From assembly GCF_037975245.1 (NCBI RefSeq), contig NC_092561.1, positions 19,403,508-19,467,507 on the forward strand: a stretch of 64,000 bases of DNA. Direction: 5' to 3'. This DNA comes from Apostichopus japonicus (Eukaryota > Echinodermata > Holothuroidea > Aspidochirotida > Stichopodidae). Position 1 is the stretch's first letter; each line of letters starts with the position of its first letter. The notes beneath the pieces are model-generated. The model was given only the letters and a program-made list of their open reading frames with translations, searched no databases and had not been told where the DNA came from. Positions 13,031 through 57,482 of this stretch are shown piece after piece. The position numbers and the translations under genes are program-made.

Positions 13031-13434
13031 ATGCATCTTTATTGTATTTCCCACTTCTTGACTATATCTGGCTGAAAATATTCATTGCCACCGGACCGAA
13101 ATTATGAACAAACAAAAATGATAGCATTTGCATAAAACACGTAATAATACCAATCTAAATTTTCTTGAGACGATTTTTCTTTTGAGCAATAAAGTACCAT
13201 TGACTGCTCGTCAAGGAAAAAAAATTACCGGTCTTCAACAAAAGTGCTTAGAACGAAATTATTTATTATTCACTGGATGCGGACCGAAAAAAAAATAATC
13301 ACTGAACATCGGTCATGACTAGCCCTATGTAATACACAGAGTGACCAAGAACGTATACTAACTTGGGGTGGATATTATTTTATTGCAATGGAGGCGAAAC
13401 AGTTTCGTAATTTGTGAAATATGTTTGATTAAAG

Positions 13435-13462
13435 CAGGGAGTCGTTCCATAACAACTCCCTG
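13435..13462. mobile_element. 28-bp palindromic micro-insertion (CAGGGAG type)
   Basis: Left half CAGGGAGTCGTTCC and right half ATAACAACTCCCTG are inverted copies of each other with one mismatched pair. Exact 7-bp direct repeats ATTAAAG flank it (13428-13434 and 13463-13469), as a target duplication would. It is small enough to consist only of two terminal inverted repeats. Confidence 0.75.
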
Positions 13463-13816
13463 ATTAAAGTGTCTTGAAAATATTTATAGCTACTGGCGGC
13501 GAACTGAATGTCACTCGAATCTCACTAATTGACATTTTGAGGTGGGAGGGGATGTGGGGTGGGGCTAACTGAAAAATTGAGCAAATTGGTTTTGACGAAC
13601 TGGCAAGTGGGAGAAACGACCGAAAACCGTTTGGAATATCTTAGCAGGCTCTGATGAGTTAAGAAATCACTTTATCTATATACGTCTTTAATGTCATTGT
13701 AACCGCCCTGTAGGATGTATCGTATATATAGCCTACCACCATGTTGAATATTAATCAGTTCGTCTTGATATGAATTATGAAGCCAGTTCTACATTTGAAA
13801 ATCCGTCCTTTAGTAA

Positions 13817-14000
13817 TATGGAACGCGAAAAGGGCAAACTGATTTCGTTGCTAAGTTTAACGTCAGTTTAGACAACGGAATTTTAGACATCAACGTGACT
13901 TTGAGCAACAGCATAATAAAACAGCAGCAACAACTTTAGTTTAGACAGCAACACACTTAGTTTAGACAACGAAATAAATTTTCCCTTTTCGCGTTCCATA
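13817..14000. mobile_element. MITE family 2 (TATGGAACGCG), copy 1
   Basis: 184 bp with inverted ends TATGGAACGCGAAAAGGG and CCCTTTTCGCGTTCCATA. The interior is built from short GTTTAGACAACG-like repeats. A second copy lies at 20799-21000. The outer TA suggests a TA target. Confidence 0.85.
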
Positions 14001-14003
14001 TAG

Positions 14004-14029
14004 CTTGGAGGTCTGTTTTTACCTCCATG
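14004..14029. mobile_element. 26-bp micro-insertion (CATGGAGG type)
   Basis: Ends CTTGGAGGT and ACCTCCATG are inverted, with a short centre between them. Exact 7-bp direct repeats CATATAG flank it (13997-14003 and 14030-14036). The left repeat includes the last four bases of the MITE ending at 14000, so this insertion is younger than that MITE. Confidence 0.75.
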
Positions 14030-14319
14030 CATATAGTAGTACTGCCGTTCAGTTTTTCGCCACTACCCACTTCTTCACCTTTCAAAGGTGTTTAGTCTGG
14101 AACATTAGGCTGTGTGTTACGTAATCAATTCGCCAAGCCTAGCAAAGGAAACGAGCGTGGAAAAGTCACTTGCACAGCTCAAAATTCCCCCGATCTATAG
14201 GCCTACCGCAAGAGCCTATGAAATTGTCCGAGGCAGGCCAACTGTTATAGCAATGGTCAAATGTTTTATCACTCCAAAATCAACTGTTCGAAATGAAAAT
14301 GTAATTAAATTAGTTTCAC

Positions 14320-14347
14320 CAGGGAGTTGTTATGGAACAATTCCCTG
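14320..14347. mobile_element. 28-bp palindromic micro-insertion (CAGGGAG type)
   Basis: CAGGGAGTTGTTAT and GGAACAATTCCCTG form a near-perfect palindrome. Exact 7-bp direct repeats GTTTCAC flank it (14313-14319 and 14348-14354). Confidence 0.75.
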
Positions 14348-14449
14348 GTTTCACTAGTTTTTATTAAGGCGCCATGTTTGTAATACAATACGTCACGATT
14401 TTTCTTGTTTGAGTAATTTTATCATCATTTATGTTTTCTTTCATTAAAC

Positions 14450-14480
14450 CATGGAGGTAAAAACAGTTTTTACCTCTATG
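14450..14480. mobile_element. 31-bp palindromic micro-insertion (CATGGAGG type)
   Basis: CATGGAGGTAAAAAC and GTTTTTACCTCTATG are inverted arms around one base. Exact 7-bp direct repeats ATTAAAC flank it (14443-14449 and 14481-14487). Confidence 0.75.
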
Positions 14481-14706
14481 ATTAAACCTTGCTCTTTTTC
14501 ATTCGTCTGCTTGTTCGCAAATCACAAGAAATGCGGCCAAAAGTGAACTTGAGCTTGCATATATATGTTTGTCATATAACTTTCTGATTTAGCAGTTCAT
14601 CGTAAGGAATGACTTACAAGTGAACACTCAACTTGTTGTTTTAAACTACTCTGTTTTCATTTTCTTTGCACACAGACGATCACGTGTTCAATTCCACACT
14701 ATCACC

Positions 14707-15783
14707 ATGGCGACAATACCACCGACCGAAAATGATATTATTTCTGACTATGGTAATTCTTCAGCTCCGTACGATGCTGGTAACTTCATCACCGTGTTGT
14801 CAGTCTCGGTACAAATCCTTCTCATTATCGTCATATTCTGCGGTAACTTCCTCGTCACCGCTCTGGTCTGCAAATTCGAGAGATTACACACGCCCTCTAA
14901 TTTCTTCGTGGCGAATATGGCCATCGGTGATATCATTGTGTCGCTTGGCATGATGCCAGGCGTTGTCATAACCTTTAACCCCTATCTCTTGGCTAACAGA
15001 TATTTCTGTTTGTTATTGTGGTGCACGCAATTGTTAGGATCCTCAATCAGTTGTTTATCCCTGCTGTCCCTTACGGTGGATCGGTATCTCAAGATTACGC
15101 GACCGCTGCGCTTTGTCACCCTGGTAACGATGCGTCGCGTCGGCATCGTCATCGCCTCCATTTGGGCCTACACGTTTACGATGACCATAATCTTACCGTT
15201 CGCTGGTGTCACGCAGCAATTCCAGTTGTGCTTTGATTTTACGTCAGTCTTTAACCTCATACATATTCAGGTATACCTGGTCACTTGCGGACTGATTACT
15301 TTCGTCATCATGTTCATTTGCTACGCCGTTATTTTCAAAGTCGTGTTGGAAAAGTCAAAAGACATGAAGAGCACAGAGATTGCAATGGCTAATGCTAAGC
15401 GCAGGAATAAAGAAGAGAGCACAAGCACAGCCGAAGGAAAGGGTTCAAAGAACCGAAGACCGTCCATGATAAAACCGTGGGTCAGACGGCAGATCAAATC
15501 ACTCAAAACTCTCGTCATTGTGATTGGTCTGACAGCGGTTGCTTGGATACCAATCGACGTCGTGCTTTTCAAGGAAATCTACAACCCAGATTACCGCGCG
15601 ACACTCACCTTACGGACGATTCTGAGTTGGTTTACATATTTCAATAGCGCCGCCAATCCATTTATCTACGCTTTCCGCAGCCCGGAGTTCCGCGTCTCCA
15701 TTCGACAAGCTGTTAGGCTGTTTTGGCAGGCTGACGAAAACCGCGGTAAAAGTACCAAACAACCAACTGTCGATATATTGTAA
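14707..15783 (+). CDS. class A (rhodopsin-like) GPCR 1, orphan
   Basis: A 358-residue seven-helix receptor encoded in one exon. The start is ATG 14707 (CACCATGG, a strong context); a polypyrimidine-AG acceptor at 14675 implies a spliced 5' UTR. Landmarks: N-glycosylation site at N17, TM1 N47, TM2 D75, C101 and C175 as the TM3-ECL2 disulfide, DRY at 125-127, a long basic ICL3 (about 211-263), W280-x-P282 in TM6 with Ala in place of the usual Cys of CWxP, and NPFIY at 317-321. The NPFIYAFRSPEFR end resembles adenosine- and amine-receptor tails, but I cannot name a ligand. The closest relative in the window is the minus-strand receptor at 54489-55511. Acts at the plasma membrane through G proteins, by family. 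Confidence 0.9.
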   Translation: MATIPPTENDIISDYGNSSAPYDAGNFITVLSVSVQILLIIVIFCGNFLVTALVCKFERLHTPSNFFVANMAIGDIIVSLGMMPGVVITFNPYLLANRYFCLLLWCTQLLGSSISCLSLLSLTVDRYLKITRPLRFVTLVTMRRVGIVIASIWAYTFTMTIILPFAGVTQQFQLCFDFTSVFNLIHIQVYLVTCGLITFVIMFICYAVIFKVVLEKSKDMKSTEIAMANAKRRNKEESTSTAEGKGSKNRRPSMIKPWVRRQIKSLKTLVIVIGLTAVAWIPIDVVLFKEIYNPDYRATLTLRTILSWFTYFNSAANPFIYAFRSPEFRVSIRQAVRLFWQADENRGKSTKQPTVDIL

Positions 15784-16116
15784 CACCGGTTTTTTATTGC
15801 CATCTCACTTTTTCTGTTTTATCGTTTACAATGATGATCATATTCTTATGATGTATGTATAGATAGTGAGGGTCGGTTGCGAATCGCTCGGGTCTGAATG
15901 TTTCCTTAGAAAATACACAATTCATGTTAGTATGCTACATGATTAACAATGTTGATCGGGAGCAATTAACTGCGATCCTCCCATGTATTTCAGGATGTGT
16001 TGGGGAGGAGGAGGGGTGGGGTAGGTCATGTCTGTACTGTCATAGTGAAATTCGCCGTTATAATATGACTGATTTGTGGAAGCACGTACCTCGAATGTTG
16101 CATAGTGGGGAAAGTA
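15784..16116. other. 3' flank of GPCR 1
   Basis: Probable 3' UTR followed by unannotatable sequence. An AATAAA at 16365-16370 lies further on, but inside repeat-like sequence, so the true 3' end is unclear. Confidence 0.35.
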
Positions 16117-16545
16117 TCCCCAGGGGCGGCGCAAGAGGGTTCAATCTGAAAGGGGCAATGTCACATGTGACACAATTATAGTAAGTTAACCCCAAAGATA
16201 CCTTAGAGCGTGCGACCAAACCTTTGTGCATTCCGTATCTCAAATTCTAGTATTTTAATGTTTGTCAATGAAAGGGCACACTTTATACACTTTATTATAT
16301 TCATAATTTCTCAATATATGGGCACTTTGTAAGTAACAAATATTAAAGAGGCACATTTTTACTTAATAAACATATATATTCAAGAGGCACATTTCACTTA
16401 CGAAGATGGAAAGAGTGTATACCTTTTCATGTAAACATAGTCGGCACATGTCACTTAAAAAGTAGGGGCACTTTTGACGAGCGTTACAGGGAAAGGCATG
16501 GTTCCCCCGTGCCCTTCTGGCTTACAAGGTCGCCCCAGAGTATTC
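16117..16545. repeat. possible hAT-like remnant
   Basis: Begins CAGGGGCGGCGCAAGAGG, of the form seen at hAT ends, and closes with a GGTCGCCCCA motif. Between them are several GGCAC-containing short repeats. No clean target duplication was found. Confidence 0.35.
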
Positions 16546-16574
16546 CAAGTCGCTATCACGAGTTAATTTGTGTA

Positions 16575-16660
16575 AAAGTATAAGTGGGCCTGACGTTTAG
16601 ATCCTAGCAGGATCTTCACCAGGATCGAAACGTCAGGCCCACTTGCTTTTAAACATTCTC
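16575..16660. repeat. hairpin repeat AAGTGGGCCTGACGTTT
   Basis: Arms AAGTGGGCCTGACGTTTAGA and CGAAACGTCAGGCCCACTT are inverted around GATCCTAGCAGGATCTTC-like sequence. One arm also occurs at 8411-8462, so this is a dispersed repeat in a head-to-head form. Confidence 0.7.
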
Positions 16661-17230
16661 TTACACAGGCTTCTTTAGTGAATAAGCCTGTTTGCTAACA
16701 ACTTTTGTTTTAATTTTGTTTTTTAAGAGTTAATTTGATTATATTCTTGACAAAATATTTTCAAAAAAACGGAACTCATTGGTTTTTGCACGGTGTACGG
16801 TGTACGGTGGTCCTGAAGGAACAGAAGAGTCAAATACTTAACTGTGTTGATACTACACGACAATACGTGAGGAAAACGATATTTGTCGAGGTGATAAAAT
16901 ACAGGTAAACGATCTTCTATCTTGACGAATATTATCAAATTACCGACTTGATGCGTTGCACGTGTTGCTGAGCAACGTGCAACCCAGTAACGCGATTATT
17001 TGATAAATTTGCAACAACATGTCGTTATGTCAGCGTAAGTCGTCATATTTACACAAAATATGGCAAATTTGTCGAGATAACGTGTCAAACTACTAACATT
17101 CACTCACTCGCTCAAGGGTGAATGCTGTTATGGCAGTACTTGGGGTAGTTTATGCTATTAAGTCACAAACAATTAATGTTCGAATGATTCTGAGAAGGAC
17201 TGTTTTTCTATAGGCAGGCTTGACCATTAT
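16661..17230. other. intergenic, nothing recognised
   Basis: AT-rich sequence; no supportable gene. A short GTGTACGGTGTACGGTG repeat occurs near 16792. Confidence 0.45.
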
Positions 17231-18001
17231 CAGGTGCGTATCCAGGGGGGGGGCGTTGGGGGCGCGCGCCCCCCGGGTAAGAAAAAGAGGAGAGAAAAAA
17301 AAGGAAAAAAGAGGGGAAAAAAGAGGAGGAGGAGAGGAAGGAAGGGAAAAGAAAAAGAAGAAAGAGAGAAAAAGGAGAAAAGGAGGGAGTAAAAGAAAAA
17401 CGCGAAGACACCGGGGCGAGAAAGAGGAACAGTGACATCATTACAGCGCTGAAGGGTAGCCAGTGACGGATCAATGATTTCGTAAAAGTGTGACTCACCC
17501 TACCCCTTACACCGACAACTCCATTTTTTGACGTTTCCATTTTCCTCTCTCACTAATGATCTATATATGTACTATATATGGTCTATCATAACGCGTGTGT
17601 AGAATTGTGCTATGAAACCAACTGTGGCTGGTCTCGAACTCGACCGTGTCGTCGGGGAACATGACGCATTTTGGGATGGGGGCGATCGCCCGCCCCCCCC
17701 CTTATTCAGCATTTTTTTAAATGATATCGCTAAGTAATTTCAAAATAGAAAGTGCTTAGAGGCAACTTACAAGGCCTGGGAAGTGTCATTTCCAGCGATC
17801 TGGGAGACATTTTCGGCCAAAATTTGCTTGTACGCTTCGCGCTAACAAATGGTCCTGGGTAGTGCCATTTCCAGCGATCTGGGAGGCATTTTCGGCCAAA
17901 ATTTTCTTGTACGCTTCGCGCCAACCTATGGTGGCGCTACGCTTAGATAATTTGCCTACAGGCTTCGCCCCTCCCTTGGCAAATTCCTCGCTACGCGCCT
18001 G
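17231..18001. repeat. mosaic of hAT-like non-autonomous elements
   Basis: Starts CAGGTGCGTATCCAGG and ends CTCGCTACGCGCCTG, roughly inverted ends. It contains a GC-rich segment, an AG-rich tract (17280-17430) and a local duplication of about 95 bp (about 17770 and 17865) carrying CATTTCCAGCGATCTGGGAG and TACGCTTCGCGC. These motifs recur at 19.3, 20.0, 43.2, 43.6 and 45.7 kb. No target duplication was found, so it is probably several insertions. Confidence 0.55.
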
Positions 18002-18149
18002 TTCGAATTTGTAACGCAAACAGCAGATATCACATCATGTCAGTGAGCATGAAAATGGCGTTCCAGGATGAAAAGCCTCAAAACTGTCCGACCTGCCTGA
18101 AAAAATAACCAAAAATTTTCGCGCGCGAAGCGCGCGTTCAACGTGTTCA

Positions 18150-18844
18150 TGTCAATATCATATCAGCATGCATCTGAAAATCAATTGCACAAAAACTGAG
18201 AAATTTACAATCACAAGAAAAGGAAATGACAGTTGGAAGAAATGTAAATATGTTGGAAGCTTGCTGGGAACCGAAGAAGACATTAACAGAAGAATTGGTA
18301 TAACCAACGGTGCTTTCAACACACTGTCAAGCATTTTTAAAAGCAAAAACATAAGCCGGAAAATTAAGCTTAGGATCTTTGAGACTTTATTAAAGAGTAT
18401 TTTTTTGTACAATTGCGAACTGTGGGGCACAACGAAGGATCTTGATCGCAAAATTGACACTTTTCAAAGGAGACTACTTCGAAATATTCTCAACATTAGA
18501 TGGACCAATAATAATTGGTTATCAAATGATGAGCTCTACAACGAAACCAACCAAACACCTTGGTCATCGATAGTCGCACATAGAAGATTGAGATTTTTTG
18601 GTCATGTAGCAAGACTCCAAGAGGACGCTCCAGCAAAGGTTGCTCTAAGAGAAGCACTGAGACATACTGCTAAACCAGTTGGAAGGCCCGTGACTACCTT
18701 GCTTGGAAAATAAAGTCGCAATTCAAGGATATTAATATTAACAGTTTCGAGGAAGCAATAAACCTTGCGCAAGATCGTAAAACGTGGCGGAGGTTAATCA
18801 CTGAGCATGTCGAATAGACCAGACTCAACTTACTACTACTACTA
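18150..18844 (+). mobile_element. 5'-truncated non-LTR retrotransposon, reverse-transcriptase C-terminus, frameshifted
   Basis: Encodes about 180 residues typical of the thumb and C-terminus of a LINE reverse transcriptase: LKINCTKTEKF, then KYVGSLLGTEEDINRRIG, SKNISRKIKLRIFETLLKS, LYNCELWG, and RRLRFFGHVAR with a downstream basic stretch. A frameshift near 18690 separates the last part, which stays open in another frame to TAG 18815-18817. A (TAC)n tail follows (18827-18840), as at LINE 3' ends. 5'-truncated and non-functional; clade not assigned. Confidence 0.75.
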
Positions 18845-19024
18845 AGCATCGGTTATTACATCGCATGCCATCATGTACCGTACGGTCCGTTCAAATTGCG
18901 CAGTATTTCGCGGGATGCTAATGTAAACAACGACATGTCTCATGTAGATGTATAAAAAGCATGGAGGTCCAATTATGTAAACACTCTCTTTTACATTAGT
19001 AATGGCGAATTATGGGCTGCACCC

Positions 19025-19421
19025 CCGCCGCGCAGTGGCGGAGCGTCCATACGGTCGGGGGGGTGGATGCCCCCCATGACGGACTCAAATGGACTGCTGG
19101 CGCCTTTTTTAGCTCTTTACCACTTTTTACTTATTCTAGATTATTAACTTTTTTATTGCGCTCTCATCTACTTCTTGACATTTGTCACATTTTGTTGGTG
19201 TCATTTGGCGATGACACCTATTTATTCTTCGTTTATCTGCAAATTAGCCAGGCCCGGAAAGGGTCATTTCCGGCGATCTAGGGAGTATCTTTATTCAAAA
19301 ATTTTCTGTACGCTACGCGCCAACCAGTGGTGGCGCTCCGCTTAGATAGTGTCGAAAGCGCTCCTACAGACCATTCTCGCCACTCCTGACCAATACCCCT
19401 AGCTCCGCCACTGCCGCCGCG
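19025..19421. mobile_element. hAT-like non-autonomous element with 8-bp target duplication
   Basis: Element 19033-19413 with inverted ends CAGTGGCGGAGC and GCTCCGCCACTG. It is flanked by exact 8-bp repeats CCGCCGCG (19025-19032 and 19414-19421), the hAT hallmark. Length 381 bp, no transposase. The copies at 43541-43918 and 45656-45986 are the same family in the opposite orientation. Confidence 0.88.
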
Positions 19422-19937
19422 CCTCCTACGCCTATGTGTGTAGTGTTCGGTTTCGGAAATATCTGCTATTTTTTCATTCCCTTCAACCAAGTTTTATAAT
19501 AGCCGTTATAAGAGGTTTTAATGTTTGTACACCAATAAATTAACTGTGTCTGAATTTTCGAAAATTTCTGACCAACATTCTGCATCACACTTCCCTCTAC
19601 TCGTGCAATTTTGACCGGTCTGTTAGGGGTTGAAGGAAGTTTTTCTATATTGGTTGTCCATAGATGAAATTTTGTACAACATTATGGGTATGTTTTGAAG
19701 TGAGTTTATTCACGAGAAATGTGAATTTTCAAATTCTGAACAAATATGGGGCTTAAAACCTTGAAAAGTGGGGCTGACGGGTATTGTGGGCCGCGACGTA
19801 GAATCACCTACAAAAGCAAAGACCCACAGGAGATGCCATCAGGTCGAACATGATGTGTGCCGGGTTGACGAACTTCAAAAAGGTTATGGATGGAAAAAAA
19901 ACTATTAGGAAATACCTGGTTCTCAGGCAAAAAGTGT

Positions 19938-20102
19938 ACATCTGGTTGGTCATTTCAAGCCCGAGAAGTGCCGTTTCCGGTGATCTGGGGGGGGGGTCTC
20001 AAAACAAGAAATTTTCTTGTACGCTGCGCGCCAACCGATGGTGGCGCTCCGCTTAGATAGTAATTCGCGCCCCCGGGTTTGAAAATCCTGGATACGCGCC
20101 TG
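19938..20102. repeat. hAT-like fragment
   Basis: Shares GTGCCGTTTCCGGTGATCTG, TTTTCTTGTACGCTGCGCGC and GGTGGCGCTCCGCTTAGATA with the elements at 17.8 and 19.3 kb. Ends ATCCTGGATACGCGCCTG, a different terminus from CCGCCACTG. The left end was not located. Confidence 0.6.
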
Positions 20103-21592: not shown

Positions 21593-21597
21593 CTTAA

Positions 21598-21667
<70 letters not shown>
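21593..21667. repeat. (TA)n microsatellite
   Basis: Pure TA dinucleotide run of about 75 bp. The surrounding 21.0-22.1 kb contains no recognisable gene. Confidence 0.9.
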
Positions 21668-21669
<2 letters not shown>

Positions 21670-25553: not shown

Positions 25554-25577
25554 GTGAAACTGCAGCATTACTCTAAC

Positions 25578-28500
25578 ATGTATCGAGAACCCACATCGTG
25601 GCTTGGTCTTGTAGCAGCCGTTTTCTGTGTCCTTTTCGGGAGTACGGTGCCTTTCCCAACTACCATAGGGAGAGATCAAAGGATACATGTAGATAATATA
25701 GCGCAAGGTAAGTATAGGAAAATATATTACACATAACATCGCTTTATACTGATTAATTCTTCTTTATTAGCACAATTTTGTTAAAATTTTATTTAATCAA
25801 CATTACTTTTTTGTTTTTGTTTTTAATTACGATATGGACTTAATTAATCGCGTGGCTTATCAGAGCAATGTTACTCCATAACTGTAAAACGAGCAAAACA
25901 GCATGTCGAATACACAAGCAATTCTCCTTGTTTCTTCTCTGTCATTCACTGCGTGCAGATGTGTTTTCCGTTTACGATTTGAACAAAGATGGCCACCTTG
26001 ATGTGATTGAGGTGATTCTATTGGCTATCAGGCACCAATCAGGAAGCCACGGACAACTTGACGCCATCACACACACAGTCACAACTCTATTTGAAGTACT
26101 TGAACGAGATGGTAATTAAACAAAGATCGAGTCTTATCGTTTCTACCGCTTAATTCTCAATGGTTTAAAATTTAATAAAATTTCAATTTTATTACCACTT
26201 GTGCAAGATGTTAGCAATGTTCTATCAAGTTTAATTTTTAGAAAAAAAATGTTTTTCTTTGGGTATGCTTTTAAACATCTACGATATAACGATAACGTTG
26301 ATTGGATGAACTTTATAGTACGGAATTTAAGAACCCCATAGGTTGCAATAGTAGCCGATTGTGGTTTCGTTACCATGTGAAAATTATTTGGAAACGGTAA
26401 CACCTTGGATGGCACCTGAGAAGATCCGTAACCATCTACAAACTATGAAGAGGTAGAAAATTATATGAAAATTAAAAAAAAAAAAAAACTTGAACAAAAC
26501 TTATTACAAAATAAATTGATCAGAATTATGTTAACTTAATTTCATTAGAGTCGAGAACCACGTTGGGGGGGGGGACAAAATTTCATTTTCCTTTAAATGG
26601 TAGCCCGCTACTTTATGAAAATGAGAATGCAAAGTTCTTCCTTTCCATTTTCCCAGCACCCCCCCCCAAATACCCATTCTATTGGTACCTAGGCTGTACC
26701 CCCCTGCCCCGAGTTTCCTCTCACCCCTTTCCCGAGTTTCCTCTCAAACCTTTCCCAAGTTTCTCCTCACCCCTTCCTCGAGTTTCTTCTCACACTTACT
26801 CGAGTTTTCTTCTCACAGGACTTCCTTAACGTTAACCTTTGACATCTGACAGTTGACATTAAGCGTTCGATGGTACGTAGATACTCACATATGGCTTTCA
26901 AACATTCTCTTCACATTTCCTCAATATATGTTTTTCTGGTCTGCAGGTAACGGTAAGATTGATATCTCTGAATTCCAAAATCTTCAATCCGATCCAGCGA
27001 TATATGCTACCAACGATGAAGTCTTTGGCATGTTTCAACTATTAGACTTGAATCGAAATGGACGACTTAGGTGAGATTTTCACAACTTAAGTGTAGTAAA
27101 GGTAACTTGAGTAATCGTGCTTAGTTCCTATAAAGGGGGCACATGAATAGACATGCCACTCTCACGATAAGAACATTTAAAGTTTTAAAGGCATTGAAGA
27201 CTCGCCCCAAACCGCGTGCCGCCCTCCGAAAAAGTTAAAGTTTTCTTCTTGTCGCTACAAAATGCAGACAGTAATGAAACGTGATACCTTGTTATCTTTT
27301 ATCTAGACCTGAGATGTCCATCGCTACTATATGTACACTGTGTTGTGGTTATCATGGAAGTAAAAACAGACCTCCATGTTGTTATTGACCGTAGCTGTAT
27401 GTATTGACTGTACACTAGTGTCTAATTACCGACTGTAACAAGCTGTGTGTGTATTTTCTGGGATGGATGGTGGTGTCTAACACTCCTATTACACCTCATT
27501 CGAAACTAGGTTAGATTACCGGCATGAGATGTTTCTTTGTGCGCGAGTCTTCACACCCTTTAACCAACTCTCAAGTACGTATTAAGAAGTTGTAATATCT
27601 GAACAGAGAGAGGCAGACAGAGCGTATCAATTTCGTCATCTGTAAAACATTCCTGGTTTACTTATGGTATCATTACCGTATGTGCATTGACAATCTGCTG
27701 TTAGTGTGTGTGTTCGAGTATTTCTGATCTCGTTTTACAGTTATCTGTGATATATATATATATCTGCATTATATATATATATATATATTTCCCGCCACAG
27801 TGTATCAGAAGTAGGGTTATCGCTGTTTAATGGCACACTAACAGAAGCTAATCGTAAATCCATAGAGGCTGTAGACACAGACAGGAACGGAGAGATCAAT
27901 TACGCAGGTAAGTGTGATCGAGTTTCTTATTATAATGAACAATAGCTATCGATGAAATATATTCAATATAAGGGATTAGGATTAAGAATTCGATTCCAGT
28001 ACGCAGTATGAATTGCTCAAGAACCTATATGTAGCATAATTTATTCCTATTCCAAATTGCATATATACTAATTTAAAACAAAGACGCCCTGCTATCATCC
28101 AAGATTGTATGTAGGCATATCTCCATAACATTTTTAAGTTTTTCGAATAATTTTTGTAAAAATAATCTAAGGCTAATCAATTAAAATGGCTGGACTAGCA
28201 AGTCTATATAGGAAAGCAAAAGGCTTTTATTATACCTCCTCAAACAATTAACATTTGTATTGTATAACACGTTTGTCAAGGGCTAATATTTAGTATATGT
28301 TGGAAGTAATCCAAGAGTGTGTTGTCTGTTATTTATATACAAAGTTCATATGACATACTTTGATTGAGTTGTTAGAATTTTTTGAAACGATAGAGTAACA
28401 GTTAACATTTAGGACTGCACTGAGAAGCTTACGTTGTCATTAGTATACTATAAGAATAATATTGATAATAATAGCACTGATATAGACAGTTATTTGTTGT

Positions 28501-36245: not shown

Positions 36246-36252
36246 CACAAAC

Positions 36253-36280
36253 CAGGGAGTTGTTCCATTACAACTCCCTG
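36253..36280. mobile_element. 28-bp palindromic micro-insertion (CAGGGAG type)
   Basis: CAGGGAGTTGTTCC and ATTACAACTCCCTG form a near-perfect palindrome. The flanks CACAAAC and CACGAAC (36246-36252, 36281-36287) match at 6 of 7 bases. Confidence 0.7.
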
Positions 36281-36300
36281 CACGAACAGGCTATTATGAT

Positions 36301-36333
36301 CAGAGTTGTTATGGAACAAATAATACTCCCTTG
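36301..36333. mobile_element. 33-bp micro-insertion, diverged CAGGGAG type
   Basis: CAGAGTTGTTATGGAACAA followed by ATAATACTCCCTTG. Flanked by direct TATGAT repeats (36295-36300, 36334-36339). It lies 20 bp from the previous element. Confidence 0.55.
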
Positions 36334-36339
36334 TATGAT

Positions 36340-38865
36340 GTTAGAACTGTACTGTGTGACAAAACACTTAAATGCATACATGTGGTAACATGTTGCTATG
36401 ATCCGATACTAGCTGGTTGGGTGTATAAATAGATCACCATTATGCAAACTGCACTGCACATGGTTTCCATTATGTAATAAGTTTCATTTTATGAATTTGT
36501 CAATCTGACATGTATGCTACTGTATATGTGTAGGCTGCATGTACAACTTATTGTATCTTAATAATATACAGCAAAAAACTATTGAGAACTGTGATAAACA
36601 GCATTTTCAAAGTGACAGTTGGGGATCTAAAAAAACCACTGAAAGCCTTCTGTAGCGATATAACATGATACTAAACATTATATATCTCTGCAAGCTAGTG
36701 TACCCTGCTTTGAGATGCATGGTTTAAATAAGGTTTTCACAAGTTTGCCCTGTTGACCCAACCACTGGCCTAGACATACCAATAAATAGATCTATCCATG
36801 CTTCAAATTGAGTTTTCACAATTTGACCATTTTTACCTAAATTACCTTTGACCTTCACCAAAAACAATAGGCTTCTTGTACTTGTGATGCATCTATGTAT
36901 ACATACCAACTATGACCAACTATGAGATCTGTCCAATAAAGCTTACTGTCATGAGAAACTGTGTTTACAAGCTAGGATCACAAACACAGTACTCCTACCA
37001 ATGCACACGCACACATATGCCATCGTGAGTGGAAAGTTTCAACATCATTGAAACCATACATTAAAAATGAACTCAGTCATAATGCCAAAGTCTGTGTACA
37101 CGAGTAGTCCTGAGCTTAAACCCCAAATGATACGTTGAGGGACTAAATGTACCGGTATACATAGTCTAGGGTGCATGCAATTTTTTAGTAAATGAACTGC
37201 ATGCGGGATGAGGCATTGAACCATGCATGAATACTCAGTCAATCTCTTGAAGTAATTGCATGCTAAATTCCTGGGTATAACTTACATACCAAATAATAGA
37301 TCAATATTCAAACTTAGTAGTGTGGCATTTTTCTCAATTGTTGCATATGCGGTTTCCATGAAAAAAGTGATAGCTAAATTAACTAAACTGACATGAATAT
37401 TGGACAACATGTACACTAAGTATATATTGACATCAAATAGGGAACTGCACTGTCAAGACTTCCACTTGCAATTTATGAAACAATTATCTGGACTTATTTA
37501 TGTTCATTCTCTTGTCAGAAAAGATGGCTTAAATTTGGCACAATTTGAGGAATGCATGAATGCAGAATGAGAACACCACAGCAGATATGCTCCACTTTAT
37601 TGCAAGAAGTACAGGGCTGCAATTTCAAGGTCGACACAGGATATCAAAATACTGTAACTTTGAGCTGCTGGTTCATGCTGACCATGGGATGCAGAGAGAA
37701 ATGGCTTATATGGAAATAAGGAGCTCCCACAAGCATATATTGCAAACATCCCTGTTGTCTTTAATATTCAGTAAGTATTGACTGTGAGATATATTTTAAA
37801 TCCCTATGACCTGAAGTTAGTTTTCTAAAGTCTTCCCTTTAATATCCTCTACGTCTGATCAACACACACTATACATAATATAAATTTACTGTACTAAGTT
37901 TCAACACGAACAAAGGTGATGAAAATTTGCTGTGATGAAAGGTGATGAAAATTTGATGAAAAGGTGATGAAAATTTTCAAAAACTGTAAACGATCTAAGG
38001 CAACGGCTAACAAAGTAATGTAAGAAAGACTTTCCACTTCCCACCAAGTCCACTGCCAAACCTTTTGTTTTACTTTGCTACTTCCACCATCATAGAATGT
38101 TATCAGAATTGAAATGACTTTATGTGTAGTCTTTGAAAACCAAATGTACTGTAAATCTGCCATCTGGCAGGCTGGAATGAATTGTAGGTAGGATTGTGAA
38201 GCAAAGACTTGAGGTGTTAACACACCATCACATTTTAACCTTGATTATGATGTGTTTATTTGTACCTTTTGCAACAATGTCAATATCAAAATGTGAGGCT
38301 TTAAAAAAATATTTACATGGAATGTACTTCAGTGAAACTTTGACATATGATTGAAATGTTGTTTTGGTTCGTTGTAGGTTAACGAGAGCTGATGGAATTT
38401 CTCCACAAGAGAAGGAAGTACTGTCATCAATAAAATCTGCAGACAGAAGAATATTTTTACTGAAGATCAAAATTTTCAGTGAAAGGAAAGGCTTTCGATT
38501 AAAATTGGACAAACAACTTCTGTAGATACAATGAGGACTAGATTTATATGTCATTGCTTGGAGCCAGGTACGGTGCATTCTATGAGTTTGAATTTTTCTT
38601 TTTAGTTTCTGGACAGGTATATGACATGCAGCATACAAATTAAAATTTGTTAATGAATTTTCTTCCTTCACAGCATCATAAAATTCATTATTAATAATCC
38701 ATTTATACAAATTCTTATGTTGCTGTATTTGAGAATAATTTTCGTTAGTAAAACAAAGATTTTAATCATATTCATTGCATTAACTATTATTCATGTAACT
38801 CCCTTACTTCACTGTATCAAATAAAACATTGTTTCACCAATCCATTATTCCAGTTGTTACACTGC
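36340..38865. other. CpG-poor tract, nothing recognised
   Basis: A 160-codon open frame on the minus strand (38710-38228) shows no recognisable domain and I do not call it a gene. A short GATGAAAATTT repeat is at 37917-37978. Confidence 0.4.
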
Positions 38866-50707: not shown

Positions 50708-51023
50708 GGCTTCATAATTGACGCACCCCCGTAATTGACGCACCTTAAATTATTACTAGCAATGGATGTGTACTAAGGCCTACACTACAGTTAGCTTATC
50801 GACGAATGTGTCAATTTAGGGGTATGAAAGAACTTGACACGGCAGACATTTTGTGGTCAAATTCTGCTCAATTGTACGGTGCATAAGCACAGAACCTTAA
50901 ATATTTTGAGATTAGAACATTTCTGAGGAACTACACATATGAAAAACACATACAGTTGAGTAATTTGGATTTTTCCTTGATAGATATCATTGATCAAATC
51001 CTTAAGTGCGTCAGTTATAAGCC
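50708..51023. mobile_element. TIR element GGCTTNATAATTGACGCAC
   Basis: Left end GGCTTCATAATTGACGCAC and right end GTGCGTCAGTTATAAGCC are imperfect inverted repeats, about 316 bp apart. A partial direct copy is at 34614-35030. No target duplication was clear. Confidence 0.55.
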
Positions 51024-51426
51024 CACCATGCTACAGTATCTGGTAATGATTAGGGCAATGTACAGTAACATAATTGTCCAGCAAAATCTAAGGCCATATA
51101 TGATACATACATGCACAGTAGGCTAAGAAATTAAGCTGACCTACTTGAAATCTAATTTCTCTGGCAGTTGGTATTAATTTGTAGCTCAAACTACAGACCA
51201 GTTTACCCTTGACCCAATCCTAAGGTAGTGTTAGGACTTGGACTATGGCCCTAGGCTACAGCCGAACGTAGGCTAGGCCTTACAAGTTTTAGGCTAGAAG
51301 CTAGTCTAGACTATAGTATTGAAATATGGGTATGAACAAAATAACGTGAAGCTGTATGCAACAACGTTACAATATCAACGTTATTAATATCACCAAACTT
51401 AATTTACTAATCTCATTGGACCTTAC

Positions 51427-51720
51427 CTGAAGTTGTTGGTGAGACGTTTTCGTTTTAACGGTACTTTTTTAAGAAAAAGTCAACAAGGAAAGAACCTGGG
51501 CACGAAAACCAAACTACCCGGCGAACGACTGACCCGATCTCAAGCCCAGTCCCTTGCATCGAGAGGAAACAGATACTACACATCATCTTATATTAGCCGA
51601 AACTGTTATTGGGTTGCATGCAATGCAGCCTACGGGTATGCTTTAGCGTTAGCCCTGGCGTATACAGTGTACACAGTGTAGAGCGTATACACTGAATACA
51701 GGCTACTGCCGCTGTCAAGA
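51427..51720 (-). promoter_or_regulatory. probable minus-strand first exon and promoter
   Basis: On the minus strand, CpG-rich sequence ends in a strong donor ACTTCAG|GTAAGG (junction 51427/51426). The only ATG-led frame found closes before the donor, so the exon is probably non-coding. It marks the right edge of the CpG-poor tract that extends left. Its downstream coding exons were not found. Confidence 0.4.
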
Positions 51721-51785
51721 AAACTACGGATGCCTGTACGTCAGGTCAACTTATATACCAACTGGGGGATATACTTTGAGAGCAA

Positions 51786-51951
51786 GACTTAGGTTTACCG
51801 TAAGGGTTTGACCAATTGGATTTTTCCTTGCCAAATGACCCAAAAAGTAGGTAGCAACTTATAACGACTAATATGCAGTCCTAGTACCATAAGGTATACT
51901 GATGTAAAATTTCAAGTTGATCCAATCATTTCACCTCAGGTAAACCTAAGC
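51786..51951. repeat. 166-bp element bounded by GACTTAGGTTTACC
   Basis: GACTTAGGTTTACC at the left and GGTAAACCTAAGC at the right are inverted. The interior is unrelated to the palindrome at 33685-33737, which carries the same ends. A small TIR element is likely. Confidence 0.6.
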
Positions 51952-51989
51952 ACCAACTTGGAGAAGTAAACGTAAATACCAATCCAGTG

Positions 51990-51990
<1 letters not shown>

Positions 51991-52037
<47 letters not shown>
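51991..52037. repeat. (TA)n microsatellite left of the foldback
   Basis: Pure TA run of about 45 bp. Confidence 0.9.
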
Positions 52038-52038
<1 letters not shown>

Positions 52039-52075
52039 GCAATGGAGGTAAACGACAAAGGCAAATGAATATATA

Positions 52076-52365
<290 letters not shown>

Positions 52366-52894
52366 TTTTTTCGCTTTTGTATCGAATTTTATGCATTTTT
52401 AGAGTAAATATAGAGATATCAATTTGTTAAGCAATATATGAAATCGCCGAGCCGCGTGTTACTCGTGATAATAGAAATGTTGAAATCTTAGGGGTGGGGC
52501 GAGATAGGATTGGGCGGGGGGAGGGGAGGGGAGAGGAACACGAAACATTATTTTTTAAATAATTCTATCCTTGTCAATGTTGAGTCCGTAGACTCAAACA
52601 GCGGTGACAGATAGATTGATAGAGAGAGAGGTTGGGGTGGGAGGGAGGGGGGGGGGGGGAGGTGGAGAGAGAGATAGAGAGGTCGGGCGGGGGGATCAAG
52701 TTATGTGCGATTTATGAAAGAAGAATTGGTATTTAATTACACATAAAACATGCCTAAAAAATCAGAATACGCCTTCAGAAATAATGTAAGCAAAGTACAA
52801 ACAAACGTATATGACGTAAACGCTGTATACGTCATATACGTTAGATAGATGGACAAAGAGCACTAGTTTAAGGGACACAAACTCAACCATCATC

Positions 52895-53189
52895 TTAAAG
52901 GGTGTGAAGACTCGCGTAAAAAGAAACGTAATGCCGGTAATCTGACCTAGTTTCTAATGAGGTGTAACAGAAGTGTTAGACACCACCATCGATCCCAGAA
53001 AATACGCACACAGCTTGCTACCTTAGGTAATTAGACACTATGCCCACAGCACAGTGTAACAAACGGTACAGCGTTTCATTACTGTCTGCATTTTGTAGCG
53101 ACAAGCCGAAAACTTCACTTGCAAGCAACAGAAAGTTAACTTTTTCAGAGCGCGGCCCGCGGATTGGGGCGAGTCTTCAATGCCTTTAA
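52895..53189 (-). mobile_element. MITE family 1 (TTAA), copy D, internally deleted
   Basis: TTAA-bounded with the family ends (TTAAAGGGTGTGAAGACTCG, GAGTCTTCAATGCCTTTAA). At 295 bp it has lost about 75 bp from the middle (the ACTAGTGTACAGTCAG region). Confidence 0.85.
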
Positions 53190-53443
53190 GCTTATATGTC
53201 GGAAAACAGTGGTAGTAAAACCTACCAAATCTAGCTAAGAAAAATCGTGTTCCGTTTGTGAAATATCTTATACTTTATAATCCGAGTCTGCGCACTGGCG
53301 CTGTCATTTTTTGAATCTGTGAAATATGATACTGCCACTATAGGGTTTCAAACCTTTAAATATCTCACTTTTTTAATATCTCTAGTATTTCACATGTTCA
53401 AGGTATACATATTCACAGTGCAATGCCATTACTATAGGTCACG

Positions 53444-53815
53444 TTAAAGACATTGAAGACTCGCCCCAAATCGATCGCTTGCCACGCTCTGAAAAAGTTA
53501 ACTTTCCGTTGCTTGCAAGTGAAGTTTTCTTCTTGTCGCTACAAAATGCAGACAGTAATGCAACATGATACATTGTTATCTTTAGCTGGACCTGAGCTGT
53601 CCATCGCTGTATCGTTTGTACACTGCGCTGTGGGTATTGACCGTAGCTGTATGTATTGACTGTACACTAGTGTCTAATTACCGACGGTAGTAAGCTATGT
53701 GTGTATTTTCTGGAATCAATGGTGGTGTCTAACAATTCTGTTACCCCTCATTCGAAACTAGGTCATATTACCGGCATTATACGTTTCTGTTTGCGCGAGT
53801 CTACATACCCTTTAA
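53444..53815 (+). mobile_element. MITE family 1 (TTAA), copy E
   Basis: Full-length, 372 bp, TTAA-bounded, in inverse orientation to copy D only 255 bp away. Keeps the uninterrupted GCTGTGGGTATTGACCG site. Confidence 0.88.
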
Positions 53816-54488
53816 AGACATGAAGTTAAATATTGTAGATTCGAACATTTGCAAAACCCCTGCATCTCAATTACAGAAATAAATGATTGTAATAAAGAGA
53901 GAAATCATAAAAGAATTGAAGCAGATGTCTTGTATGTGAAGATGGAAACAACAGCCACAACAACAACAACACGTACATTACAACTTGTGATACCTCCTAA
54001 ATGAAACCAGACTTTTTTCTTTTGCTGTTTGAGGAAGATGACCATGACAGTTAAATCTCTCTAAAACAAAAGCCAATCATGATGGTTAGGTTTTGGGTCT
54101 CTTTTCGAAAATCCGAATTAACATTATTCAAGTATATAATATATTTTATAATATTTGCTTTTCATACAATGCAAAGACAACGGCATTGTACACAAACAAC
54201 TTTTAATCGATTAATTTAGAAAGGTAAGTTAATTTGACGGTGATGATCAAGCAAATGCCGACTCACGGTTGAGTTAATTTATTAATCATCTCAGTTAATG
54301 AAGCAATCAATTGCTTTGACAAAGGCATAACGTAGTACAATGCACAACATACATAAAATACATATTTTAATAATTCACGTTTTGAAGAGTTTTGTTTAAC
54401 TTTATTATATGAAGTATATACCTTACATACGACTTGACGAAATCTCCTCAAATAATGGACTCCGACGAATTAACAAATATCGTCCGCC

Positions 54489-55511
54489 TCACGGTACAGT
54501 GGTACCACTGCTACTTGGGTACACCCTACTCGACCGACTGTCAGACAGCCTATGAACCACTAGCGCTAAATCCTTGTAGAATAACTCCTTGGATGCTTCG
54601 CGGAACTGCTCACTTCGAAGCGCATATAATATGGGATTGACCACGCTGTTCAGATATGTAAACCAACTTAACACCGTTCTAATCGTTAAAGATGCTTGAA
54701 TCGTGGGAAAGTGTAAATCAAGTAGAACTAGTGTTATCGAGGGCAACCAGGCACAGCCGGTAAAACCAACGATTACTGCCAGGGTAGATAAAGTCTTGAG
54801 CTCTTTCCGCCATATTGATTGTTTGACTTTTGGAGCAATCGTGTATTCTGCAGATGTTCGTTTTTTTTCTCTCACAAGTTTAAACATATAAAAATAAATG
54901 ACAAGTAACGTTAGGAATGGACCAAGCCCGTTGAAAACGAACATGTAATGGATGTGGTAAATGTTAAACACCCGGGCAAAGTCAAAGCAGAATACCCCTT
55001 CATTACGTAACCCGACAAATGGTGGTAGCACCACGGAACTAAAACCGTAGAGCCATATTATCGCGATGACCACTAACGCCTTTCGTTCTGTTATAAGAGC
55101 ATGGTAACGTAACGGTTTCACGATTTTCACGAACCGGTCTAGGCTTAAGCAGAGTAACGATAGGACACTCATAGTTGAAGCAAACACCTGCGAACACCAA
55201 AGCATGAGGCAACCGTTAATGTCGTTGACGAAAGAAGGATTAAATGTGACTTTCACACCTGGTATTAATGCAATGGAAAGCAAAAAGTCAGCGACAGCCA
55301 TGCTGGCTGTAAATAAATTAGAACTATTCCTCAAACGCCTGAAACGAGCGATCAGAATAATAACCCAAAGATTTCCTATAAAAATAGCAGAAAGTAAGAG
55401 TATCTGTATGGCCACCGAAACGTAGATAATAAGAGGCAATGAGTAGCTAAAAACAGGCACCGCTGTATCGGTTGACACATTAGTAGTTTCATTAATAAAG
55501 AAACTCGCCAT
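54489..55511 (-). CDS. class A (rhodopsin-like) GPCR 2, orphan
   Basis: A 340-residue seven-helix receptor in one coding exon. The start is ATG 55511-55509 (ACATAATGG, good context), eight bases after a TTTCTAG acceptor, so the 5' UTR is spliced as in GPCR 1. Landmarks: N-glycosylation sites at N7 and N11, N47, D75, C101 and C175, DRF at 125-127 (variant of DRY), W255-x-P257 preceded by Ala, and NPILY at 292-296. ICL3 is much shorter than in GPCR 1, so the alignment in total length differs by 18 residues. Shared signatures with GPCR 1 include TFNP, LLWCxQ-like TM3, FCFDF in ECL2 and RTxLSWFTYxNS in TM7. Ligand unknown. Confidence 0.9.
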   Translation of the reverse strand: MASFFINETTNVSTDTAVPVFSYSLPLIIYVSVAIQILLLSAIFIGNLWVIILIARFRRLRNSSNLFTASMAVADFLLSIALIPGVKVTFNPSFVNDINGCLMLWCSQVFASTMSVLSLLCLSLDRFVKIVKPLRYHALITERKALVVIAIIWLYGFSSVVLPPFVGLRNEGVFCFDFARVFNIYHIHYMFVFNGLGPFLTLLVIYFYMFKLVREKKRTSAEYTIAPKVKQSIWRKELKTLSTLAVIVGFTGCAWLPSITLVLLDLHFPTIQASLTIRTVLSWFTYLNSVVNPILYALRSEQFREASKELFYKDLALVVHRLSDSRSSRVYPSSSGTTVP

Positions 55512-55641
55512 TATGTTAACTAGAAACAAGTGAAATGATGTTATTGGTAACCGTCTTTGGTTATCCTTAAGACTGGTCTATTCGTGGTCGGTTATTCGAA
55601 TATGCACGTGCGGTTTAAGACAAAGACAAAATAATGACAGA

Positions 55642-55773
55642 CGGTTATCCGTCTTCGATTATAACAATAAAATACGGTTATTCGTCTTGGAATACAACGA
55701 TGAAGGGCGGTTATCCGTCTTCGATTATAATAATAAAAAGAAAAATATCCGTCTTCGAATACAATGATGAAAA
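55642..55773. repeat. 33-bp minisatellite, four units
   Basis: Units start near 55642, 55675, 55708 and 55741, each like CGGTTATCCGTCTTCGATTA followed by an AAT-rich part. It lies about 130 bp upstream of GPCR 2, in its presumed intron or promoter. Confidence 0.85.
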
Positions 55774-57285
55774 TGGGAGAATTGATTCTACACGTGATCG
55801 ATTAAATTGAAGAAGTTAAGCTGTCCATGTATGTCCGTTTACAATATTGAAAAGTGGTTAGTAACCATGCCTTTTGTAGCATTCTCAAATTGCTGTTGAA
55901 ATCACACAACTATACGTTAAAAGAGGACTGAGCTCCCGAATTTGGTGCGAAATATAAATATTGATTCTCTGTAAACTTTCTCTTATTACAAACGCTTTGT
56001 TAAATAATTCATATACAACGTTTGCTCAGTGCACCGAAGACTAATTCCTTGTATATCTGTTAAGTGACTAGAGTATTGCACACTGAAGGAGAAATGGTTT
56101 TCTTGCAAAGACATTCGTTAATTGTTTGCGTTGTTTAGAGTGGATATTTCAATCACACGAAACGATTGAAACTACGCTCGTCTATAATGACTGTAACAAT
56201 TGATGCATTTCTCTTTATTCTTAATTTCAATCGGTTCTTCTCACTTGGAAGAGAACTTTCATCCGATAAAAGGTCAAAATTTACAATCCAATTCAATCGT
56301 CACGTTGATCGATAACTCTAGACCGCTCTACGAAATTTCCAATCCATTAGAAAGAATTTCCAATTGATAATCTTCTCGTCTACCTACGATAATTATCGAT
56401 GGAGCTTTGGCACAATTCATCAACAACTTAAAAAGTCAAGTTTAATTTGACTAGAGCGAGAAGGTCCACCTCTAAAGAGTAACTGATGAGAAGTTGCTGC
56501 GGAAGAGAAGGCTAAACAACTGCAAAAAACAACTGCTGTAGTTAATAATTTAATTAATTATGGTTCCTTGCGTAATAACAATTATAAAGAAAGAAAATCC
56601 GCAAACAAACCTGACACAATATTAATCGGTAAATCTTGAATCAAGACCCCTCTCCAAATGAGCTGCCGCGATAATTTCAACTTGCCAGTTTCCACAAAGA
56701 ATCTATCTCTGTTTCCTATCTACAAGCTTTTCTACTATTGATCTTTAAACTATAATGCGTCAGTTTTTCCTAATATAGAACTGCAAAACTGACATTCTGA
56801 GAAGATGAAGTAAGAAAACCAGGCTCTGTAACTTTTTTTTATATATTTCTTTTGATGACGCATTGTCTTGAATACATCAACTATACGAAATTATCACATG
56901 TACCATGCAGCATTACCAATGGCATGATGGTCTTAAATAATACAAATAAAACGTGCGCGTGGCTTAATTAAGTGACGTCACGGTACCGTAGAATATATTA
57001 TTTCTCAGTGAAAGTGGATTTGTCAATGCAGAGATTATTTTATGGTCAATGTTAACAAATATTGCTTAAACGGAGAGTACAGCTAAAAACATAGTCACGA
57101 CTTGCAGTATAGTGTATATTCGCAAGTTTCGTGAGCACTTGTAGCAAGTCTTGTTGGTTGCTAGGTAAACTGGCCTAATAGACGTTGTACCCTTTTGTCT
57201 GACTGCAAGAATTTACCATCTCTTCAGTGAATTCCGATCCATGAACCGAATCCACGAAAAGAACATAGTGAGTGCTCAGTTGCGT
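55774..57285. other. upstream flank of GPCR 2, nothing recognised
   Basis: AT-rich, no coding signal. The first untranslated exon of GPCR 2 may be here but no convincing donor was identified. Confidence 0.4.
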
Positions 57286-57292
57286 GTTATAG

Positions 57293-57321
57293 CAGGGAGT
57301 TGCCATCATTTAGACACCCTG
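57293..57321. mobile_element. 29-bp micro-insertion, CAGGG ends
   Basis: Starts CAGGGAGTTG and ends ACACCCTG, inverted at the tips, with a non-palindromic centre. Exact 7-bp direct repeats GTTATAG flank it (57286-57292, 57322-57328). Confidence 0.65.
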
Positions 57322-57482
57322 GTTATAGTAACTATGGTAATATCGAGAGAAGTTATACACAAAACAACACACATAACATTGCCATTGTTCATTTATCATA
57401 TTGTCACGTGATATGTGTATAATAAGATGAGTATCACTATTAGCTAGCGTATGGCAAGCCAGGTGGGACAAACACCGCATAA

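What the first reader, a model, noticed from the sequence alone, without database searches (positions are those of the whole stretch)
13428..57328. Eight 26-33-bp palindromic insertions, each with a direct flank repeat of about 7 bp
At 13435, 14004, 14320, 14450, 27353, 36253, 36301 and 57293 there are tiny insertions made almost only of two inverted ends. Flanking repeats are exact in five cases (ATTAAAG, CATATAG, GTTTCAC, ATTAAAC, GTTATAG) and 6 of 7 in three. An exact 7-bp match at a defined position has a chance of about 1 in 16,000 each, so the set is not random. Known MITEs are usually 100 bp or more; these look like minimal transposons or end-to-end fused TIRs that still insert with target duplication. 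A 7-bp duplication is uncommon among named superfamilies.
Basis: seen in the sequence. Interest (0 to 1): 0.9.

Follow-up and report, generated by a model that had tools for sequence, protein, structure and literature searches.

The report
Scars left by departed P-type transposons
The tiny palindromes are most likely repair scars left where P-element-type jumping genes cut themselves out of an animal genome, probably a sea cucumber's, and they record how the enzyme cuts and how the animal mends its DNA.

Summary
In detail: all eight palindromic insertions are where stated, with 7-bp direct flank repeats (five exact, three 6 of 7). The reading as minimal transposons that still insert is not supported: they are excision scars of P-superfamily transposons. 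The host genome (671.6 Mb) has 2558 CAGGGAG and 646 CATGGAGG palindrome matches against 44 and 0 for reversed patterns. In 50 sampled sites flanks repeat exactly at 7 bp in 28, at 6 bp in 0, at 8 bp in 1. A 12,042-bp element with the same ends, 33-bp inverted repeats, an exact 7-bp duplication and a P-type transposase frame is the source type of family A. In 99 family-A junctions chosen to keep at least 16 nt of one end, that end stops at 18 nt in 76 and never reaches 20. In 9 of 34 one-stub loci the 7-bp flank recurs behind a single stub, which a two-ended mini-transposon does not explain. Drosophila P excision gives the same anatomy from 17-nt tails. Not settled: the sources of families B and C, two of the eight scars, the overhang itself, and the species.

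The parts
13428..13469 (+). Scar 1, family A: TSD ATTAAAG, 28-bp join at 13435-13462, TSD ATTAAAG
   Evidence: decodes as two family-A end stubs (10-12 + 16-18 nt) with 1 mismatch
13997..14036 (-). Scar 2, family C (CATGGAGG): TSD CATATAG, 26-bp join at 14004-14029, TSD CATATAG
   Evidence: 17-18 + 8-9 nt, 1 mismatch
14313..14354 (+). Scar 3, family A: TSD GTTTCAC, 28-bp join at 14320-14347, TSD GTTTCAC
   Evidence: 16-18 + 10-12 nt, 1 mismatch
14443..14487 (+). Scar 4, family C: TSD ATTAAAC, 31-bp join at 14450-14480, TSD ATTAAAC
   Evidence: 16-17 + 14-15 nt, 1 mismatch
27346..27385 (+). Scar 5, family C: flanks TGGTTAT / TTGTTAT (6 of 7), 26-bp join at 27353-27378
   Evidence: 17-18 + 8-9 nt, 1 mismatch
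36246..36287 (+). Scar 6, family A: flanks CACAAAC / CACGAAC (6 of 7), 28-bp join at 36253-36280
   Evidence: 1 mismatch
36294..36340 (+). Scar 7, degenerate: by eye a left stub of family A lacking GG plus an unassigned right stub, 33 bp; flanks 6 of 7 with a 1-bp shift
   Evidence: does not decode with families A-C by ungapped joins (17 mismatches)
57286..57328 (+). Scar 8: TSD GTTATAG, 29-bp join at 57293-57321, TSD GTTATAG; its ends belong to no family defined here
   Evidence: 7 mismatches to the best A-C join
14593..15783 (+). Open frame of a rhodopsin-type GPCR directly downstream of scars 1-4 (context, not part of the scars)
   Evidence: PF00001, E 2.9e-38 for 14701-15783

Best explanation
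Each palindrome is the excision scar of a P-superfamily cut-and-paste transposon. The transposon inserts with a 7-bp target duplication (shown for two long family-A copies). On leaving, its transposase cuts one strand at the element end and the other about 18 nt inside the inverted repeat. Each broken flank then carries the TSD plus a single-stranded 3' tail of about 18 nt of transposon end (inferred from the ceiling in the junctions and from Drosophila P biochemistry). The two tails are not complementary end to end. They are trimmed and joined, most often with 1-2 bp of overlap, which leaves TSD - up to 18 nt - up to 18 nt inverted - TSD (product shown, process inferred). In family A the commonest join, 28 bp, is the one in which the terminal AA of one tail could pair with TT at positions 11-12 of the other; the recurrent 25-bp join fits pairing with TT at positions 8-9.
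For: Source element: facing ends CAGGGAGTTGTTATGGAATGG at C3:19626415 and C3:19638456 enclose the P-transposase locus L015. The 12,042-bp element has an exact 7-bp TSD GTCTGAC and 33-bp TIRs; a 4,560-bp copy on C2 has TSD GTTTAAC. Its 628-aa frame matches PF21787 (E 1.8e-29) and PF12017 (2.1e-5), another frame PF21789 (3.2e-8); the only PDB sequence matched at E <= 0.001 is 6p5a, 'Transposable element P transposase', 1.4e-9. Ceiling: in 99 junctions (from 100 listed rows of 901 matches; the pattern itself requires 16 nt of one end) that end reaches 18 nt in 76, 17 in 13, 16 in 6, 19 in 4, none >=20, although totals up to 43 bp were allowed and the longest was 34; overlap 2 bp in 45, 1 bp in 23, 0 in 8. 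One-sided scars: of 34 one-stub loci the left 7-bp flank recurs exactly within 10-26 nt in 9, in five of them with nothing between stub and repeat (L092, L130, L137, L140, L144), and at >=6/7 in 14; shuffled 0.00 and 0.91. L109: about 58 nt of one end joined to a 10-nt stub inside TSD GTTCGAC, as incomplete gap repair would leave. L145: filler that repeats the stub, TSD GTTGAAG on both sides. Empty sites: 4 paralogues with TGGCA-GTTGTAC-CAACG, control 0. Precedent: Drosophila P{wa} junctions, same anatomy from 17-nt tails, with microhomology and templated insertions (PMC2895639, passages with Table 1; PMC7776569, passages).
Against: Two of the eight window scars (36301, 57293) do not decode with the three families defined. 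In 23 of 99 junctions the two stubs do not add up (gap of 1-6 nt, from mutation or insertion). Long elements for families B and C were not identified, so their P origin is by analogy. Family B is not capped at 18: 44 of 90 sites keep at least 20 nt, 32 of them 22 if the end continues AG, and without the long element its limit is unknown. In 14 of 50 sites the 7-bp flanks differ by two or more bases. 20 of the 34 one-stub loci show no flank repeat at >=6/7. The ends of the second copy on C17 were not at the expected offsets. A de novo scan of 203,517 bases gave 6 exact 7-bp hits, of which four are in the window, one is a locus fetched for its scar, and one (L005) is not of these families. Some scars are multiplied inside other repeats. 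The overhang was not measured.
Confidence: 0.93

Rival explanations
1. Minimal transposons: 26-33-bp units made of two fused TIRs are themselves recognised by a transposase in trans and inserted with 7-bp TSDs.
For: Both ends are present in the eight window sites, the TSD is exact in five, and one 28-bp sequence is very common (42 of 99 junctions).
Against: One-sided scars with exact TSDs (9 of 34, five with nothing between stub and repeat). Family-A stubs stop at 18-19 nt. Products with about 58-60 nt of one end and with filler exist. The common 28-bp form is the join expected from two terminal A of the tail.
Confidence: 0.04
2. Footprints of another superfamily with CAGGG ends, such as hAT, whose target duplication has the pattern nTnnnnAn (recalled).
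For: The TSD pattern here (T at position 2 in 34 of 36, A at position 6 in 28 of 36) and CAGGG termini resemble hAT (recalled).
Against: The element with these exact ends and a 7-bp TSD carries P-type transposase domains. hAT excision makes hairpins on the flanks and should not leave 18 nt of TIR (recalled).
Confidence: 0.03
3. Internal-deletion derivatives (MITE-like) that shrank to nearly nothing and were copied along with host repeats.
For: Nine of 47 sampled loci sit in one repeat family that carries the scar along, and a pair of B scars about 90 bp apart recurs.
Against: Many sampled loci have unrelated flanks with their own TSDs; random deletion end points would not stop at 18 nt.
Confidence: 0.03

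Closest known systems
Drosophila P-element excision junctions (P{wa} assay; 17-nt 3' tails)
   Same: TSD - stub of TIR - inverted stub of TIR - TSD; short microhomology joins, one-sided losses, templated insertions, incomplete gap repair (PMC2895639 passages with Table 1; PMC7776569 passages)
   Different: Induced in the laboratory there, accumulated in a natural genome here; 8-bp TSD and 17-nt tails there, 7-bp TSD and an inferred 18 nt for family A here
Galileo (P superfamily, Drosophila)
   Same: P-superfamily transposon with a 7-bp TSD, consensus GTAGTAC, close to GTTNNAC here (PMC2775673, passages)
   Different: Galileo has long, internally repetitive TIRs; the element here has 33-bp TIRs in 12 kb
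Zebrafish Pdre2 / THAP9
   Same: P-type element outside insects, in a deuterostome (PMC10983969, passages)
   Different: 13-bp TIRs and 8-bp TSDs
Excision footprints of DNA transposons in rice
   Same: Excision traces studied genome-wide (PMC4423477, passages)
   Different: Found by comparing two species, with 1,821 polymorphisms examined by hand; here the scars carry an end signature that one genome can be searched for

Membership tests
P superfamily (source element of family A) | P-type transposase (HTH plus RNase H domains of the TNP-like family) | tested here: met
   PF21787, PF12017, PF21789 and PDB 6p5a; the frames are separate and were not joined
P superfamily (source element of family A) | Terminal inverted repeats (31 bp in Drosophila P, 13 bp in Pdre2) | tested here: met
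   33-bp identical repeats at both ends of C3:19626415-19638456
P superfamily (source element of family A) | 7- or 8-bp target duplication | tested here: met
   Exact 7-bp GTCTGAC and GTTTAAC at two long copies
P superfamily (source element of family A) | Long staggered cut, about 17 nt inside the TIR | tested here: inconclusive
P-type excision scar (the eight window sites) | TSD on both sides of joined, truncated element ends | tested here: met
   8 of 8 with 7-bp flanks, 5 exact and 3 at 6 of 7
P-type excision scar (the eight window sites) | Core is a join of two known TIR ends within the overhang length | tested here: inconclusive
   6 of 8 decode with 1 mismatch; 36301 and 57293 do not. 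Of 2000 random 28-mers with fixed CAGGGAG/CTCCCTG ends, the best had 3 mismatches (2 of 2000)
Family C (CATGGAGG) as P superfamily | Long element with these ends and a P transposase | tested here: inconclusive
   None identified, but only about 100 rows of 255 matches were listed and 10 loci fetched; one facing pair on C4 was not resolved
Family B (CAGGGAGCTGCTACT) as P superfamily | Long element with these ends and a P transposase | not tested
   No search for it was made
Minimal transposon / MITE | Both ends present in every copy | tested here: not met
   Copies with one stub and an exact TSD (9 of 34, five with nothing between)

The most novel reading that the evidence does not exclude
This animal loses its P elements largely by end joining rather than restoring them by gap repair, so that scars far outnumber residents (about 3,700 strict palindrome matches against 45 transposase-domain matches). 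The scars would be a natural genome-scale assay that reads out, family by family, the transposase cut offset (18 nt for A, probably 18 for C, 20 or more for B) and the germline end-joining spectrum of an echinoderm, with repeated visits of different P families to one 7-bp site recorded as stacked scars.
Probability: 0.55. Interest if true: 0.65.

Novelty: new variant of a known kind. Interest (0 to 1): 0.55.

Why it matters
The papers seen here study P-type cleavage with its long stagger in Drosophila. If the scars are read correctly, the cut offset of unstudied P-type transposases and the repair preferences of another animal's germline can be estimated from a genome sequence alone. The scars also suggest that P-type transposons were far more active in this genome than the remaining transposase copies show, and they offer footprint-type markers for population work.

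Tried and rejected
Rejected: mini-transposon (one-sided scars, ceiling); hAT footprint for family A (the transposase is P type); MITE shrinkage (sharp ceiling). Led nowhere: literature search for the palindrome letters (4 papers on unrelated subjects, judged from the listing); termini search around other P-transposase copies, which gave one 7,016-bp candidate with 8-bp TSD and CAGAGCCGT ends that does not match the scars; empty-site test of a scar nested in the 12-kb element (both long matches carry it); full-length element for family C (partial search); ends of the C17 copy. A facing pair of family-C ends on C4, about 5.5 kb apart (L127, L128), has GTATGAC outside both ends, but as an inverted, not direct, repeat; unresolved.

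De novo scan (517 bases, redundant loci left out): exact TSDs around CA...TG palindromes 6 at 7 bp, against 1, 1, 0, 0, 0, 0 at 4, 5, 6, 8, 9, 10 bp. Four of the six are window sites, one was fetched for its scar, and one (L005) is not of these families.

For family C, 16 of 49 sites keep the 18 nt, with C (11) or T (5) next.

Rows dropped before counts: one of 100 listed rows (second strand of the same site); second-strand rows and one composite join, 13 of 47 sites set aside as two-sided by a pattern. The 45 loci given to one search were 12 fetched automatically and 33 picked by me from the lists, not at random. Of the 12, L091, L092 and L093 had been seen before (as L052, L065 and the window), and L092 is one of the 9 exact cases. 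Extra bases lie between stub and flank repeat in L118 (4), L129 and L135 (TG, possibly the last two bases of the other end) and L131 (1).
Full report
Observation. All eight insertions are present at the stated coordinates. Five have exact 7-bp flank repeats and three have 6 of 7. The host genome has 671,581,487 bases in 35 contigs. That is close to the Apostichopus japonicus assembly reported as 671.60 Mb with 23 chromosomes, but not identical: the paper also gives 671,643,915 bases in 34 scaffolds (PMC10344927, passages). The species is therefore an inference from size, not a sequence identification.

Genome-wide reality. CAGGGAG-N(6-18)-CTCCCTG has 2558 matches against 44 for the reversed pattern. 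With gaps of 19-48 it has 528 against 12; that list includes stacked scars and some unrelated repeats. CATGGAGG-N(4-30)-CCTCCATG has 646 against 0. In 50 sites from 47 loci on C1 the flanks match exactly over 7 bp in 28 and with at most one mismatch in 36; over 6 bp in 0 and over 8 bp in 1; shuffled pairing gives 1.23 exact. In the 36, position 2 is T in 34 and position 6 is A in 28, consensus about GTTNNAC. The 50 are not all independent: nine loci share one host repeat and two pairs are copies.

The source element. P-type transposase domain PF21787 has 45 matches in the genome, a lower bound, and none in 14 control genomes. A pattern meant to exclude two-sided palindromes found facing ends CAGGGAGTTGTTATGGAATGG at C3:19626415 and C3:19638456, around the transposase copy L015. 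The fetched ends show an exact 7-bp TSD (GTCTGAC) and 33-bp inverted repeats, so the element spans 12,042 bp. A 4,560-bp copy at C2:29714454-29719013 has TSD GTTTAAC. The element's 628-aa frame hits PF21787 and PF12017, another frame hits PF21789, and the only PDB sequence matched is 'Transposable element P transposase' 6p5a, E 1.4e-9 (recalled as the Drosophila protein).

How the palindromes are built. I measured 99 distinct family-A junctions (the 100 listed rows of 901 matches; the pattern requires 16 nt of one end and a total of 26-43 bp). The longer stub reaches 18 nt in 76, 17 in 13, 16 in 6 and 19 in 4; none reaches 20, and the longest join is 34 bp. The stubs overlap by 2 bp in 45, by 1 bp in 23 and by 0 in 8; in 23 they leave a gap of 1-6 nt. 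The commonest product (28 bp, 42 of 99) is the join in which the terminal AA of one 18-nt tail could pair with TT at positions 11-12 of the other. The 25-bp product, outside that pattern, fits TT at positions 8-9; exactly this sequence is in 8 of the 50 rows, three of them in the shared repeat. A 36-bp, complete 18+18 join lies behind 60 nt of a left end (L111/L146). For family C, 16 of 49 sites keep CATGGAGGTAAAAACAGA (18 nt), followed by C in 11 and T in 5, and the fetched one-stub loci have C, T or G next. This fits a limit of 18, but the long element is unknown. Family B is open: 44 of 90 sites keep at least 20 nt, 32 of them 22 if the end continues AG. Repeat-borne copies inflate some B classes.

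Scars that a mini-transposon would not make. Among 34 one-stub loci, the left 7-bp flank recurs exactly 10-26 nt downstream in 9 and at 6 of 7 or better in 14; shuffled flanks give 0.00 and 0.91. In five nothing lies between stub and repeat, for example GTTTAAC-17 nt-GTTTAAC (L137) and CTGAGAC-16 nt-CTGAGAC (L140). L109 keeps about 58 nt of one end and 10 nt of the other inside TSD GTTCGAC, as incomplete gap repair would leave. L145 holds a filler that repeats the stub, as in templated end joining. Stacked scars share one target: ATGTAAC three times with an A-type and a B-type scar (L076), GTTTGAC three times (L065). L132 joins a C stub to a truncated A scar at GTACAAC.

Empty sites. A host repeat carries TGGCA-GTTGTAC-CAACG without insertion in four places (control 0). 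The nine filled loci carry the scar at that point: four with the exact TSD on both sides (L058, L066, L070, L082), one with a mutated copy (L051), and four with the right-hand 7 bp inverted (L047, L067, L074, L078), which remains unexplained. These repeats show the uninserted sequence; they are not alleles of one site.

The window scars. Six of eight decode as joins of two family-A or family-C stubs with one mismatch each. Of 2000 controls with a random middle the best had 3 mismatches, in 2. The scars at 36301 and 57293 do not decode with families A-C; 57293 suggests a further family.

Comparison. Drosophila P transposase cuts 17 nt inside a 31-bp TIR and leaves 17-nt 3' extensions, with 8-bp TSDs (PMC7776569, passages). 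Junctions after P{wa} excision have the same anatomy as here, with short microhomology, long microhomology reaching the TSD, and templated insertions (PMC2895639, passages with Table 1). Galileo shows that 7-bp TSDs occur in the P superfamily (PMC2775673, passages). In the listings I saw no paper on such scars in a sea cucumber or a genome-wide census of P scars; the library is open-access only.

What is shown and what is inferred. Shown: the anatomy, the 7-bp TSD, the source element type of family A, the ceiling in the rows examined, one-sided and partial products. Inferred: the single-stranded tail, microhomology joining as the process, the P origin of families B and C, and the species. Match counts for strict patterns miss mutated scars but include scars multiplied by host repeats. 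The 45 transposase matches include families with other ends, and long non-autonomous copies were not counted, so the ratio of scars to residents is rough.

Noticed in passing
window 13428-14487: Four scars lie within 1.06 kb directly upstream of a GPCR open frame (14593-15783), which would fit the preference of P elements for promoters (PMC7776569, passage).
   Followed up: partly
window 54489-55577 (-): A second rhodopsin-type GPCR open frame (PF00001, E 2.8e-40).
   Followed up: partly
L067, L074, L078, L047 (reverse): In these repeat copies the 7 bp on the right of the scar are the reverse complement of the left TSD, so the palindrome extends into the flanks; possibly hairpin-templated correction.
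   Followed up: no
L036 1932-8947: A 7,016-bp candidate element around a P-type transposase match with exact 8-bp TSD TTGAATGC and 16-nt ends CAGAGCCGTATATAGA: possibly an 8-bp TSD family beside the 7-bp one.
   Followed up: partly
C4:14203788 and C4:14209255 (L127, L128): Facing family-C ends about 5.5 kb apart with GTATGAC outside both, as an inverted repeat; the right one is joined to a B-type palindrome.
   Followed up: partly
C1:3231773/3231872 and similar pairs: A pair of family-B scars about 90 bp apart recurs in several places, so a host repeat seems to carry two scars along.
   Followed up: no
L035 7712-8703: Internal direct repeat of about 619 bp (95% alike) inside the 12-kb P element.
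   Followed up: no
window 18072-18713 (+): Open frame that reads like a LINE-type reverse transcriptase fragment (judged by eye).
   Followed up: no
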